NCBI RefSeq assembly: GCF_001884135.1
Contig: NZ_MAOC01000051.1
Span: forward strand, 124,001 to 188,000
Source: Bacillus nitratireducens
Lineage (GTDB): Bacteria; Bacillota; Bacilli; Bacillales; Bacillaceae_G
DNA: 64,000 bases
Direction: 5' to 3'
Positions within the stretch are counted from its first letter, which is position 1; every line of letters begins with the position of its first letter. The position numbers and the translations under genes were made by a program. Positions 32,226 through 61,658 of the stretch are shown piece after piece. The notes below the pieces were generated by a model, which did no database searches, had not been told where the DNA came from, and worked only from the letters and a program-made list of their open reading frames with translations.

Positions 32226-32298
32226 TATTTTTTTGTTGACAAGCTTTCAAATATAGTTTTATAATACAAAACATAGTTTAGTTGAACAAATTATATAT

Positions 32299-32549
32299 CG
32301 GCTTTGAAGGAATACTAGTAGCGACTTATATCCCTGTCTCAGAGAACTGATGGTTGGTGCAAATCAGTACATATACAAGCGTGAATTACAATTCTGGAGC
32401 TTCTTTCCCGTAGTGCACATAATGCATGAAGAGGAAGACGGATCTTTCCGTTATCTTAAAGTGAGTGGTAAACAATTTTTATGTTTACAATTAGGGTGGT
32501 ACCGCGATTTTTATCGTCCCTATCGGATTTTCCGATAGGGACTTTTTTG
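32299..32549 (+). promoter_or_regulatory. T-box riboswitch 1 of phhAB, tyrosine specifier
   Basis: Class: tRNA-sensing T-box leader. An AGTAG motif follows the 5' start. A GGTTGGTG distal loop of stem I, specifier region GAATTACAATTC, T-box AGGGTGGTACCGCG (32493-32506) and a terminator GTCCCTATCGG/CCGATAGGGAC with TTTTTT (32516-32549) come next in order. Alignment with the GAA-N-codon-A layout of other T-boxes (GAAAGGCA in glyQS) puts the specifier at TAC (32387-32389), tyrosine. Uncharged tRNA-Tyr should cause antitermination. Confidence 0.93.
32516..32549 (+). terminator. Terminator of T-box 1
   Basis: 11-bp GC-rich stem with a 5-base loop and T-run; the T-box sequence just upstream can compete with its 5' arm. 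Confidence 0.9.
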
Positions 32550-32580
32550 CGTCCTTCCCTTTTATACAACTTCATATATA

Positions 32581-32827
32581 CGCATTGAAAGAATCGCAGT
32601 AGTATATTATATCCCTGTTACAGAGAGCTAGTGGTCGGTGGAAATTAGCACATATATAAGTATGAATTACAATTCTGGAGCTTCTTTTTCGTAGTGCTTT
32701 TATGCATGAAGGAAAAGACGGAGTTTTTCCGTTATCATGAATTGAGATGTAAGTGTATTTTCACTTACAAATAGGGTGGTACCGCGATTTTTTCGCCCCT
32801 ATCGGATGTTCCGATAGGGGCTTTTTC
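32581..32827 (+). promoter_or_regulatory. T-box riboswitch 2 of phhAB, tyrosine specifier
   Basis: A second complete T-box that closely repeats the first: AGTAG motif, GGTCGGTG, specifier TAC at 32668-32670 in GAATTACAATTC, T-box AGGGTGGTACCGCG at 32773-32786, terminator GCCCCTATCGG/CCGATAGGGGC with TTTTT (32795-32826). No promoter is seen between the two, so they act in series. Confidence 0.93.
32795..32826 (+). terminator. Terminator of T-box 2
   Basis: 11-bp stem, 5-base loop and T-run, homologous to the terminator of T-box 1. Confidence 0.9.
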
Positions 32828-32879
32828 TATTTCTCAAAGAAACAAATGTTAAATAATTCCGAATCTTATGATAAAATTT

Positions 32880-32893
32880 TATAAGCGCTTACA
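32880..32893. promoter_or_regulatory. cre-like CcpA site before phhA
   Basis: TATAAGCGCTTACA matches the catabolite-responsive element TGWAANCGNTNWCA with one mismatch. It lies between the T-boxes and the phhA start. A TATGATAAAAT -10-like sequence lies just upstream of it. Confidence 0.55.
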
Positions 32894-32964
32894 ATTTTAA
32901 GGGAGGTGATATAAGCTATACAAAACTCATATTCAATTTTATAGAAAACAAGGAGGATGTCTAA

Positions 32965-34719
32965 ATGACAAAGAAAACAGAAATCCCATCGCATTTAAAA
33001 CCATTCGTATCCACACAACATTATGATCAATACACACCGGTGAATCACGCTGTGTGGCGTTACATTATGAGACAAAATCATAGCTTCTTAAAAGACGTTG
33101 CCCATCCAGCCTATGTGAATGGACTACAATCATCTGGTATTAATATAGATGCAATTCCAAAGGTAGAAGAAATGAACGACTGTTTAGCACCAAGCGGCTG
33201 GGGAGCCGTAACGATTGACGGACTTATTCCTGGCGTCGCATTCTTCGATTTTCAGGGGCACGGATTACTACCAATTGCAACAGATATTCGTAAAGTAGAA
33301 AATATCGAGTACACACCAGCTCCAGATATTGTACACGAAGCGGCAGGACACGCACCGATTTTACTTGATTCTACATATGCAAAATATGTGAAACGTTTTG
33401 GCCAAATTGGTGCGAAAGCTTTCTCAACAAAAGAAGAACATGATGCATTTGAAGCTGTTCGTACATTAACGATTGTCAAAGAAAGCCCTACTTCTACTCC
33501 TGATGAAGTTAAAGCTGCTGAAAATGCTGTAATTGAAAAACAAAACTTAGTTTCTGGTTTATCAGAAGCTGAACAAATTTCACGTCTTTTCTGGTGGACA
33601 GTGGAGTACGGATTAATTGGAAATATTGAAGATCCAAAAATTTACGGTGCTGGCCTTCTTTCTTCTGTCGGTGAAAGCAAACATTGCTTAACAGATGCTG
33701 TAGAAAAAGTTCCTTTTTCCATCGAAGCATGTACAGGGACAACTTATGATGTAACAAAAATGCAGCCACAGCTATTTGTTTGTGAATCATTTGAAGAGTT
33801 GACTGAGGCACTTGAGCAGTTCTCTACAACGATGGCGTTTAAAACAGGTGGCTCAGAAGGATTAGAAAAAGCAATCCGCTCCGAAAATCATGCTACAACT
33901 GAGCTAAGTAGCGGATTACAAATTACAGGTACCTTTACAGAAACAATTAAAAATGATGCTGGTGAAGTCATTTACATGAGAACAAGCTCTCCAACTGCAT
34001 TAGCAATGCATAATAAACAGTTGGCAAATCATTCTACATCTGTACATAGTGATGGATTCGGGACACCGATCGGATTACTAGATGGAGATATTGCATTAGA
34101 AAATTGTGCAGAAGAACAGTTACAATCTTTAGGTATTACAATTGGAAATAATGTAGAACTTACTTTTGCAAGTGGCATACATGTAAAAGGAACAGTAACA
34201 GACATTATAAAGAATGATAAAAAGATTGCTCTTATCTCCTTTATGGATTGCACAGTTACTCATAAAGATCGCATATTATTTGATGCTTCGTGGGGAGCAT
34301 TTGATATGGCTGTTGGCTCACAGATCACTTCGGTATTCCCAGGAGCAGCAGATGCAGCCGCATTCTTCCCGATGGATGAAGAAGTTCAAGAAACTCCTGG
34401 TCCTCTTGTACTGACTGAGCTTGAACGTATGTATCAAACAGTTCGGGATATTCGTAATGAAAATATTTTACACGATGCTCACACTGATCAATTAGCAGCA
34501 ATTCAAGAGGTATTAAATAAATTTTATCCGAAAGAATGGCTGCTTCGCCTTGAAATATTAGAATTACTTTTAGAGCATAACAAAGGGCACGAAACATCAG
34601 CAGCATTATTACAACAACTTTCTACTTTCACAACTGACGAAGCTGTAACACGCCTTATTAACAATGGTCTTGCGCTACTGCAGGTAAAGGATGTGAAAAA
34701 TGATGCTACGATTAACTGA
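32965..34719 (+). CDS. phhA: Phenylalanine 4-hydroxylase with long C-terminal extension
   Basis: 584 residues. It is a pterin-dependent, non-heme iron enzyme that converts phenylalanine to tyrosine. The iron motif HEAAGH gives H124 and H129, and [11 protein letters not shown] carries the third ligand (the Glu). The catalytic part covers about residues 1-300. The remaining 280 residues are not part of the usual bacterial enzyme and are discussed in findings. The start has AAGGAGG upstream. It overlaps phhB by 20 bases. The tyrosine T-boxes fit an enzyme that supplies tyrosine. Confidence 0.93.
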
Positions 34720-58741: not shown

Positions 58742-61384
58742 TTATTTTGAAACAGATTTAACGTACTCTTGTACAAACGCTAAAGCTTCCTCAACTTGAG
58801 CTGGGTTTTTACCGCCTGCTTGAGCCATATCAGGACGGCCACCACCACCGCCACCACAACGAGAAGCCACTTCTTTCACAAGCTTACCTGCATGGTAACC
58901 TTGGCTAATTAAATCTTTCGTTACGCCAGCTAAAATGTTTACTTTATCATCACTTACAGACGCTAATACAACAACTGCAGACTCTAATTTATTTTTTAGA
59001 TCATCCATCATTGTACGTAAGTTGTTCATATCTGCAACATTTACTTTTGCCGCTAATACGTTCACGCCATCAACTGTCATTACTGAATCAGTTAAGTTTC
59101 CAGCTTCGATATTGCTTAATTTCGCAGCAAGAGATTCGTTTTCTTTTTGAAGTTGTTTTACTTCAGCAAATAAACCATCAACTCTTGTTAAAATATCTTT
59201 TGGATTTGTTTTCATTTTACCTGCTGCTTCTTTTAATAAACCTACTTGATCGTTCATTAATTCGTATGCAGACTTACCTGTTACTGCTTCAATACGGCGA
59301 GTTCCTGCACCGATACCAGACTCAGCAACAATTTTGAAAATACCGATAGAAGCTGTGTTATCAACGTGACAACCACCGCAAAGCTCTAAGCTGTAACCGC
59401 CAACTTGTACAACGCGTACAACATCTCCGTATTTTTCACCGAATAATGCCATTGCACCCATTTCTTTCGCTTCTTCAATTGCTTTTTGAGAAATCTCAAC
59501 ATCAATACTTTCCCAAATTTTTTCGTTTACGATACGCTCAATTTTTTCTAATTCGTCAGCTTGTACTTGGCCGAAGTGAGAGAAGTCAAAGCGTAAACGT
59601 TCAGAAGTTACAAGAGAACCAGCTTGGTTAACATGCATTCCAAGTACGTCTTTTAATGCTTGGTGCAGTAAGTGAGTTGCTGTATGGTTTTTCACAACGC
59701 TACTACGGTTCTTCGTATCAATAACAGCTTTTACAGCCGCATCTTTCGTTAATGTACCCTCTTCAACAACAACTTTGTGTAAGTTCTGACCATTTGGCGC
59801 TTTTTGTACGTCTTTTACAAGAACTTTCACACCGTCAGTAAGAAGATAACCACGGTCAGCAATTTGTCCACCGCTCTCAGCGTAGAATGGCGTTACATCA
59901 AGCATTAACTGTCCTTCTTCACCAGCTTGTAAGCTATCTGTATACTCACCATTTTTCACAAGTGCAACAACGTTACTTTCTGTTGCAACTGTACCGTAAC
60001 CAACAAACTCGCTCGCTACTTTAACTTCACCAAGTACACCGCCTTGAACTTGCATAGAATCAACGTCTTGACGAGCAGCACGTGCACGCTCACGTTGTTT
60101 TTCCATTTCATTTTCAAAGCCTGCTTGATCAACTGTCATACCAGCTTCTTCTGCGTATTCTTCTGTTAATTCAATTGGGAAACCGTATGTGTCATATAGA
60201 CGGAACGCGTCTACTCCAGAAATAACAGTTGTTTTTTCTTCTTTTGCTTTTGTGATAACTTCAGCTAAAATTGCTTCACCGTCATGAAGTGTTTCATGGA
60301 AACGCTCTTCTTCGTTTTTCACAACTTTCGCAATGAAATCTTTCTTTTCAAGTACTTCTGGATAGAAGTCTTTCATTACTTCTCCAACAACCGGTACTAA
60401 TTCAAACATGAATGGACGGTTAATGTTTAATTTTTTCGAGTAACGAACAGCGCGACGTAATAAACGACGTAATACATAACCACGGCCTTCATTAGAAGGA
60501 AGTGCTCCATCACCAACAGCGAATGTTACTGTACGGATATGGTCAGCAATTACTTTAAATGCCATATCTTTTTCTAAGTCACCATTACGATACTTCTCAC
60601 CAGAAATTGATTCTGTTGCACCAATCATCGGCATGAATAGGTCTGTATCAAAGTTCGTAGGCACATCTTGAACGATAGATGTCATACGCTCTAAACCCAT
60701 CCCTGTATCGATGTTCTTCTTAGGAAGCGGTGTATATGAACCGTCTGGATTATGGTTAAATTGAGAGAATACAAGGTTCCATACTTCTAAGTAACGCTCG
60801 TTTTCTCCGCCTGGATATAATTCTGGGTCACTAAAGTCATTACCGTAAGCTTCACCACGATCATAGAAAATCTCTGTATTCGGCCCACTTGGCCCTTCAC
60901 CGATATCCCAGAAGTTTTCTTCTAAACGGATGATGCGCTCTTTTGGAACACCCATTTTCTCATTCCAAATTGTAAATGCTTCTTCATCTTCCGGATGGAT
61001 TGTAACTGATAGTAATTCTTTATCGAATCCAATCCATTTGTCGCTCGTTAAGAATTCCCAAGCCCAAGTAATTGCTTCTTCTTTGAAGTAATCACCGATT
61101 GAGAAGTTCCCTAACATTTCAAAGAATGTATGGTGACGAGCTGTTTTCCCTACGTTTTCAATATCGTTTGTACGAATTGATTTTTGAGCATTTGTAATAC
61201 GTGGATTTTGCGGGATTACGCGTCCATCAAAATATTTTTTTAATGTTGCTACACCACTGTTAATCCATAGAAGAGATGGATCTTCATGTGGAACTAGTGA
61301 TGCACTAGGTTCTACTGCATGTCCTTTTTCTTGGAAAAAGTCTAAAAACATTTGACGAATTTGTGCGCCTGTTAGTTGTTTCAT
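58742..61384 (-). CDS. alaS: Alanyl-tRNA synthetase
   Basis: 880 residues, complete. Class II core ([38 protein letters not shown]), editing domain with zinc-site [11 protein letters not shown] and CGGCHVDNT, and a C-terminal DHHA1-type domain ending in [17 protein letters not shown]. It starts at ATG 61384 after AAGGAGG. An alanine T-box lies in its leader. yrzL, ruvX and yrzB follow as an operon. Confidence 0.98.
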
Positions 61385-61404: not shown

Positions 61405-61640
61405 TAAAAAACTCCCGCCCCTATAAAAGGGACGAGAGTTAACTCGCGATACCACCCTAATTATGAATTGATTATTATAACAATCAATTCATCACCTCAT
61501 GGTGCCGTAACGTGGCAAGACGGCAGTGATTAGCTGCTCTCAGGATTAGCTTTCTGTTACCCTTCATTTAAAGCTCCTTTCAGCCAGTGGAAGCTTCTCT
61601 CTACAAATGGACTGTAACGTACTTGTTCCGTCATTGATTT
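61405..61640 (-). promoter_or_regulatory. Alanine T-box riboswitch of alaS
   Basis: Minus strand, T-box AGGGTGGTATCGCG (61458-61445). Specifier region GAAAGCTAATCC gives GCU (61550-61548), alanine. A terminator AACTCTCGTCCC/GGGGCGGGAGTT with T-run (61442-61405) follows. It induces alaS when tRNA-Ala is uncharged. Confidence 0.93.
61411..61442 (-). terminator. T-box terminator of alaS
   Basis: 12-bp stem with G-U pairs and a T-run; competes with the antiterminator formed with the T-box sequence. Confidence 0.88.
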
Positions 61641-61658
61641 AATGTATTATATGACTAA

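What the first reader, a model, noticed from the sequence alone, without database searches (positions are those of the whole stretch)
32299..32964. Two tandem tyrosine T-boxes plus a cre-like site in front of phenylalanine hydroxylase
Two complete T-box leaders in series, each with its own terminator and each with a UAC specifier, precede phhAB. The product of PhhA is tyrosine, so low charging of tRNA-Tyr would turn on tyrosine synthesis from phenylalanine. Two serial gates should give a steeper, lower-leak response than one. A cre-like site (32880-32893) after the second terminator may add carbon control. Seen: motifs, specifiers, terminators. Known: T-box mechanism. Inferred: the joint logic.
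Basis: partly seen in the sequence, partly recalled or inferred. Interest (0 to 1): 0.75.

Follow-up and report, generated by a model that had tools for sequence, protein, structure and literature searches.

The report
Two serial tyrosine T-boxes before phhA
Two complete tRNA-sensing RNA switches for tyrosine sit one after the other in front of the gene that makes tyrosine from phenylalanine; doubled switches of this sort are a known kind, and related bacteria carry none, one, two or three of them at the same gene.

Summary
RF00230 finds two complete T-boxes, 32295-32524 (153.2 bits) and 32576-32803 (145.8 bits), each with its own terminator and a UAC specifier, behind one consensus promoter and before phhA-phhB. 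Eight of 47 base pairs differ between the copies by compensatory change, so both look maintained. T-box control of phhA in the Bacillus cereus group is in print (Wels 2008), and so is the serial, pseudo-cooperative logic of tandem T-boxes (Morales and Merino 2025): a new member of a known kind. Added here: 78 distinct phhA upstream regions carry none (47), one (11), two (15) or three (5) T-boxes; first copies do not form one clade, so tandems arose, or were homogenised, repeatedly. The cre-like site beats chance locally (1 of 2000 shuffles) and recurs in near phhA relatives that lack T-boxes. Whether it serves a second promoter or a roadblock is open; the second promoter is not supported by sequence. 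Outside the window, tyrosine T-boxes without Stem II are widespread in related genomes, although two papers describe that architecture as glycine-specific.

The parts
32236..32265 (+). Promoter P1, TTGACA-18-TATAAT
   Evidence: 12 of 12 consensus matches
32295..32524 (+). T-box 1 (Stem I, II, IIA/B, III, antiterminator); specifier UAC at 32387-32389
   Evidence: RF00230 153.2 bits, full length
32516..32548 (+). Terminator 1 with U-run
   Evidence: 12 pairs, 7 G-C; -21.7 kcal/mol for 32512-32548
32576..32803 (+). T-box 2 (same elements); specifier UAC at 32668-32670
   Evidence: RF00230 145.8 bits, full length; 8 of 47 pairs compensatory against T-box 1
32795..32827 (+). Terminator 2 with U-run
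   Evidence: 12 pairs, 8 G-C; -23.8 kcal/mol for 32791-32827
32880..32893 (.). cre-like palindrome TATAAGCGCTTACA
   Evidence: 1 of 2000 shuffles of 32829-32964; one-mismatch sites also in L001, L002, L025, L031, L080
32899..32910 (+). Strong Shine-Dalgarno-like stretch AAGGGAGGTGAT with no ATG, GTG or TTG start placed behind it
   Evidence: Sequence; no upstream ORF listed for the window
32950..32957 (+). Ribosome binding site of phhA, AAGGAGGA
   Evidence: Sequence; listed before the main start
32965..34719 (+). phhA, aromatic amino acid (phenylalanine) hydroxylase, 584 aa
   Evidence: NF010657 976.1 bits; PF00351
34700..35014 (+). phhB, pterin-4a-carbinolamine dehydratase, overlapping the end of phhA
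   Evidence: PF01329 88.8 bits; NF002017

Best explanation
Transcription starts at P1 and meets two complete class I tyrosine T-boxes in series. At each, uncharged tRNA-Tyr pairs its anticodon with the UAC specifier and its 3' end with the UGGU bulge, stabilises the antiterminator and lets polymerase pass; charged tRNA leaves the terminator. Only transcripts that pass both gates reach phhA-phhB, so phenylalanine is turned into tyrosine when tRNA-Tyr is poorly charged. Shown by computation: promoter, two full structures, specifiers, terminators, genes. Inferred: the tRNA response, the independence of the gates, and a read-through that is the product of two probabilities (lower leak, steeper response). 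The cre-like site is probably a CcpA site that lowers phhA expression on good carbon; on which transcript it acts is not known.
For: Two full-length RF00230 matches; terminators and P1; phhA-phhB identity; 8 of 47 pairs changed on both sides with pairing kept, only 3 non-standard in one copy; UAC in 57 of 58 phhA T-box copies, the other being cut off by a contig end; tandem or triple T-boxes in 20 of 78 distinct phhA upstream regions; T-box control of phenylalanine-4-hydroxylase in the B. cereus group reported by Wels et al. 2008 (passages); serial logic proposed in PMC12452182 (passages).
Against: No expression data. The minimum-energy fold of the whole leader has 50 of 210 pairs across the two units, and terminator arms can cross-pair (T1 5' arm with T2 3' arm -23.2 kcal/mol, against -23.8 and -25.9 for the own pairs). 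Mixed 5' and 3' sides of the copies still give 40 and 44 standard pairs, against 46 and 45 in the real copies, so the covariation is modest. The discriminator base of tRNA-Tyr was not tested: no own genome is held and the window has no tRNA gene. 47 of 78 phhA regions have no T-box.
Confidence: 0.85

Rival explanations
1. Bypass: a second promoter between T-box 2 and phhA (extended -10 TGATAAAAT at about 32868-32876), with cre over its start, drives phhA for phenylalanine catabolism without tyrosine gating. The operon then has two alternative inputs, and the T-box tandem controls only the P1 transcript.
For: The nearest phhA relatives by tree path, L002 and L001, and L025 and L031 have a one-mismatch cre 45-79 nt before phhA and no T-box, so a carbon-controlled phhA without T-boxes exists. 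Sites with at most one mismatch: 4 of these 4 loci against 1 of the 73 others (Fisher p 3.7e-6, a grouping made after the fact, with L025 and L031 nearly alike).
Against: The promoter score is reached by 708 of 2000 shuffles. cre and the phhA start do not align in register across these loci. A single transcript start cannot be read from DNA.
Confidence: 0.35
2. Roadblock: CcpA bound at 32880-32893, about 600 nt after P1, stops polymerase that has passed both T-boxes. Carbon and tyrosine signals then act as AND on one transcript.
For: The cre-like site lies inside the P1 transcript, after both terminators.
Against: A tyrosine shortage would go unanswered on glucose, which suits a biosynthetic gene poorly (argument, not data). 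cre before phhA in relatives without T-boxes points to promoter control there.
Confidence: 0.25
3. The Shine-Dalgarno-like stretch 32899-32910 marks a small upstream ORF with a non-standard AUA start (it would end at the TAA right before phhA), or a ribosome-bound stabiliser of the 5' end, adding a translational or stability layer.
For: Nine contiguous bases GGAGGTGAT match the recalled complement of the 16S end. Upstream ORFs stand between the last T-box and phhA in other tandem lineages: M(K/N)xRIRLPC in L003-L006 and L027, and a tyrosine-containing ORF in L034, L036, L038-L046.
Against: No ATG, GTG or TTG ORF was listed for the window. The two groups of relatives' ORFs are unlike each other, and the frame is broken in L035 and L037. 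The stabiliser idea is recalled, not tested.
Confidence: 0.2
4. The second T-box is a recent, redundant duplicate kept by chance, and the tandem has no regulatory effect beyond that of one gate.
For: Tandem T-boxes are common in related genomes: by my count, 16 of 45 matches in G001 lie in pairs with starts within 400 nt, and 10 of 29 in G002 within 450 nt.
Against: The window copies are only 73% identical, yet both keep every element and 45-46 of 47 pairs. In L034-L045 the first and the second copies are kept across 12 genomes.
Confidence: 0.1

Closest known systems
T-box before phenylalanine-4-hydroxylase in the Bacillus cereus group (Wels et al. 2008, PMC2494555, passages seen)
   Same: Same gene and same kind of control; the window is most likely from this group (my inference, no call names it).
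   Different: The passages seen say T-box regulated, not two in series; no cre and no comparison of copy number.
Tandem T-boxes in Bacillota, such as thrZ/thrS, trpE and ilv-leu (PMC2494555; PMC12452182 Morales and Merino 2025, abstract and passages)
   Same: Two or three complete sensor and terminator units of one specificity in one leader; a digital, pseudo-cooperative response proposed.
   Different: The words phenylalanine, tyrosine and phhA do not occur in the main text of PMC12452182; its supplements were not readable here.
Bacillus subtilis tyrS, the type of class I T-boxes (PMC10482949, passages)
   Same: Long Stem I, Stem II, IIA/B and transcriptional terminator; tyrosine.
   Different: Recalled as a single T-box before a synthetase gene; here two before a hydroxylase gene.
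Tandem riboswitch logic gates (PMC9481103, passages)
   Same: Serial RNA gates in one leader; includes T-boxes.
   Different: The passages seen concern two different ligands; here the ligand is the same twice.

Membership tests
T-box riboswitch, class I (RF00230) | Full-length match above the curated score | tested here: met
   153.2 and 145.8 bits against 93
T-box riboswitch, class I (RF00230) | Specifier triplet in the Stem I loop, followed by a purine | tested here: met
   UAC-A in both copies; UAC in 57 of 58 copies at phhA genes, one cut off
T-box riboswitch, class I (RF00230) | Stem II and Stem IIA/B present | tested here: met
   Both aligned to those model columns in both copies
T-box riboswitch, class I (RF00230) | Antiterminator and competing terminator with U-run | tested here: met
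   GGGUGGUACCGCG and terminators
T-box riboswitch, class I (RF00230) | UGGN bulge matches the discriminator base of the cognate tRNA | not tested
   UGGU seen; A73 of tRNA-Tyr is recalled; no own genome, no tRNA in the window
T-box riboswitch, class I (RF00230) | Read-through in response to uncharged tRNA | not testable with these tools
   Needs transcription assays
Tandemly arranged riboswitches | Two or more complete sensors, each with its own expression platform, in one leader | tested here: met
   no + strand promoter-like site listed between the units
CcpA cre site | Match to the cre consensus better than chance at that place | tested here: met
   1 of 2000 shuffles; not above chance in number over the whole window
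CcpA cre site | Binding of CcpA and carbon-dependent change of phhA | not testable with these tools
   One search found no paper that holds CcpA, Bacillus cereus and phenylalanine-4-hydroxylase together
Second sigma-A promoter before phhA | Hexamer match above chance | tested here: not met
   708 of 2000 shuffles reach the score

The most novel reading that the evidence does not exclude
phhA is a gene at which serial tRNA gating has been built again and again (one, two or three tyrosine T-boxes; tandems formed or homogenised separately at least in the window, Hazenella, Neobacillus, L034-L046 and L076 lineages). In the window lineage the tandem stands upstream of an older carbon-controlled phhA start whose cre remains, giving one enzyme separate biosynthetic (tRNA-gated) and catabolic (CcpA-gated) transcripts. 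The related phhA T-boxes that lack Stem II show that a tyrosine T-box can do without the domain said to be dispensable only for glycine.
Probability: 0.3. Interest if true: 0.6.

Novelty: new member of a known kind. Interest (0 to 1): 0.4.

Why it matters
The copy number of one regulatory RNA at one orthologous gene runs from 0 to 3 across related bacteria. That is natural material to measure what serial gating buys: leak, slope and maximum with one, two or three gates of one specificity. PMC7583486 states that the modes of action of tandem T-boxes remain unknown (passage). If the cre site serves a separate start, the locus would also show how one hydroxylase is shared between making tyrosine and degrading phenylalanine.

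Tried and rejected
Other specifier frames (UUA, ACA): rejected, because the base before UAC varies (U or A at phhA, also G in the Stem II-less set) and the base after it varies, while UAC does not. One ancient tandem inherited by all: rejected; 19 first copies as one clade AU p 6.6e-111, window copy 1 with the first copies of L034-L045 p 3.3e-5; the window pair as a clade is not rejected (p 0.634) but is not resolved either (quick tree). Gene conversion cannot be told from repeated duplication. Tandems as a rarity: rejected (my count). Naming the organism: no whole genome held; no phhA match above 63% identity in genome contigs; none confirmed in viral contigs; plasmid matches cover at most 12% of the query.

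Literature: searches listed no paper on a tandem T-box at phhA in the held open-access library. Two surveys that may list it, looked up by recalled identifiers (Gutierrez-Preciado 2009 and Vitreschak 2008), are not held.

Rows dropped: L027 and L028 (phhA frame broken, longest open stretch 164 and 207 aa) from the protein tree, and 3 identical proteins; the cut first copy of L005 from the T-box tree; the 48-residue fragment in G288 from all counts; 4 of 82 loci as duplicates. L076 was not in the first-copy clade test. One search covered one strand only and was replaced. L030, a duplicate, was searched by word only, not with Rfam. In one search the distance to the T-box was misread for 4 of 22 loci (negative values), so 18 distances are used; for one (L076 copy 2). 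The filter did not list the L026 upstream ORF, which I read by eye. The alignment of the stretches before phhA did not bring cre into register.

Full report
Observation. Rfam finds two full-length T-boxes at 32295-32524 and 32576-32803 on the + strand. Both carry GAA-U-UAC-A in the specifier loop (UAC at 32387-32389 and 32668-32670), the GGGUGGUACCGCG T-box, and a 12-pair terminator followed by U's (32516-32542, 32795-32821). A perfect -35/-10 pair lies about 30 nt upstream of the first T-box, and no + strand promoter-like site was listed between the first terminator and the second T-box. phhA and phhB follow.

Are both copies maintained? Over the 219 model positions the copies agree at 169. 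Of 47 model pairs 31 are the same, 8 differ on both sides with pairing kept, 5 differ on one side with pairing kept, and 3 are not a standard pair in one copy. The copies have 46 and 45 standard pairs; mixing the 5' sides of one with the 3' sides of the other gives 40 and 44. That favours selection on both, modestly. Against clean independence: in the minimum-energy fold of the whole leader 50 of 210 pairs cross the boundary between the units, and terminator arms of the two can cross-pair. Folding during transcription may prevent this; it was not tested.

Comparative evidence. phhA relatives came (28 loci, named; 17 of 19 genomes of one family; 51 of 397 genomes of one order). Of 82 loci including the window, 78 have distinct upstream regions: 47 without a T-box, 11 with one, 15 with two (window included; L005 is cut by its contig end and may have more) and 5 with three (L003, L006, L026, L027, L046). 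Rfam bears this out: above the gathering score in L003-L006, L026, L027, L034-L048, L050 and L051 (one of the two copies of L005), and below it, at 71-89 bits, in L058, L062, L063, L065, L072, L076, L078 and L079. UAC is read in 57 of 58 copies, the other being cut off. Core-to-core spacing is 278-290 nt in 23 of 25 intervals; the others are 473 (L006) and 225 (L076).

History of the tandem. In the T-box tree the three Hazenella copies group together (support 97), L046 copies 2 and 3 group together (99), and the two window copies are nearest to each other (73% identical) without forming a resolved clade. A single clade of 19 first copies is rejected, as is a grouping of window copy 1 with the first copies of L034-L045. 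So tandems were formed, or homogenised, more than once. In L034-L045 the first copies group apart from the second copies, so there the duplicates have been kept. On the protein tree at least 11 changes of copy number and 6 of presence are needed (quick tree of 77 rows).

The cre-like site. TATAAGCGCTTACA differs from the recalled consensus at one place; 1 of 2000 dinucleotide shuffles of the 136-nt stretch matches as well. Sites with at most one mismatch occur in 6 of 78 distinct upstream regions: the window, L001, L002, L025, L031 and L080. The window's nearest phhA relatives by tree path are L002 and L001, though the window's own place in the tree is not firmly resolved. L001, L002, L025 and L031 have cre but no T-box. 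A local promoter in the window is not supported (708 of 2000 shuffles), and the sites do not fall into register in an alignment. I hold the cre site as probable and its wiring as open between a bypass promoter (0.35), a roadblock (0.25) and no function.

Known or new. Wels et al. 2008 (passages) report T-box control of phenylalanine-4-hydroxylase in all B. cereus group members they studied. Tandems of two or three units are mentioned there for thrZ and trpE, and tandem T-boxes are analysed at large by Morales and Merino 2025, who propose a digital, pseudo-cooperative response (abstract, outline and passages). PMC9413887 (passages) also says double T-boxes may give a sharper response, citing earlier work. 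PMC9481103 (passages) lists T-boxes paired with other riboswitches. Tandem T-boxes are common in the genomes looked at here. So this is a new member of a known kind.

Side findings. (a) Nine phhA T-boxes in 8 loci lack Stem II and IIA/B: the specifier lies 63-66 nt before the T-box core, against about 112 in window copy 1. Their alignment gives 38 predicted pairs, 23 with changes on both sides. A model built from them has 96 matches (by my count) in 92 of 397 genomes of the order at E 1e-16 or better; about 80 of these span under 190 nt, the rest are longer and may hold extra elements. I examined 22 new loci (L112-L133), and 22 of 22 have UAC. By my reading of the ORFs they stand before NhaC-like and permease-like genes and one nitroreductase-like gene; Pfam was run only on two proteins, from L093 (amino acid permease) and L094 (nitroreductase). 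The model was built from tyrosine sequences, so it cannot tell how often other specifiers share the architecture; glycine T-boxes without Stem II also appeared, at low score (L101, L104, my reading). PMC10482949 (passages) calls the Stem II-less class glycine-specific, and PMC7583486 (passages) explains it by the strong GGC-GCC pairing. Searches listed nothing on a tyrosine case, but the older surveys are not held. (b) Short upstream ORFs stand between the last T-box and phhA in tandem lineages. (c) Repeats like CTTAAAAGCGTTTAAGCG lie near the start of several relatives' leaders.

Noticed in passing
L058:3272-3447, L062:1888-2065, L063:2043-2217, L065:1738-1917, L072:1746-1922, L076:1522-1696 and 1747-1923, L078:1533-1712, L079:1626-1802; also L093-L095, L112-L133: Tyrosine (UAC) T-boxes without Stem II and IIA/B, upstream of phhA, NhaC-like, permease and nitroreductase-like genes; 23 of 38 predicted pairs covary, and 92 of 397 genomes of the order have a match to the model. 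Two papers describe this architecture as glycine-specific.
   Followed up: partly
L034, L036, L038-L045 (about 220 nt before phhA); L046 (88 nt before phhA): A short ORF with several tyrosine codons near its start and a good ribosome site lies between the last T-box and phhA; in L046 it overlaps the phhA start. The frame is broken in L035 and L037.
   Followed up: partly
L003, L004, L005, L006, L027 (56-91 nt before phhA); L026: A 9-codon upstream ORF M(K/N)xRIRLPC (MKIRIRFPY in Hazenella, read by eye) follows the last T-box; it recalls short Arg-x-Arg arrest peptides (recalled likeness).
   Followed up: partly
L047, L050, L051, L058, L063, L065, L072, L078, near the start of the T-box leader or before phhA: Repeats like CTTAAAAGCGTTTAAGCG that look like an operator of an unknown regulator (L063 and L078).
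   Followed up: no
window 61425-61643 (-): A third T-box (100.3 bits) before an 880-aa ORF at 58742-61384 that looks like alanyl-tRNA synthetase (my reading); its specifier reads as GCU, alanine.
   Followed up: no
L003/L021, L004/L012, L005/L009, L006/L020: Four named Neobacillus species carry two phhA genes, one behind tandem or triple T-boxes and one without T-box, as if biosynthetic and other roles were split.
   Followed up: no
L001, L002, L025, L031, upstream of phhA: A shared AAGAAGG and AGAAT-TATA pair of stretches around or before the cre site that recalls a sigma-H promoter (recalled likeness).
   Followed up: no
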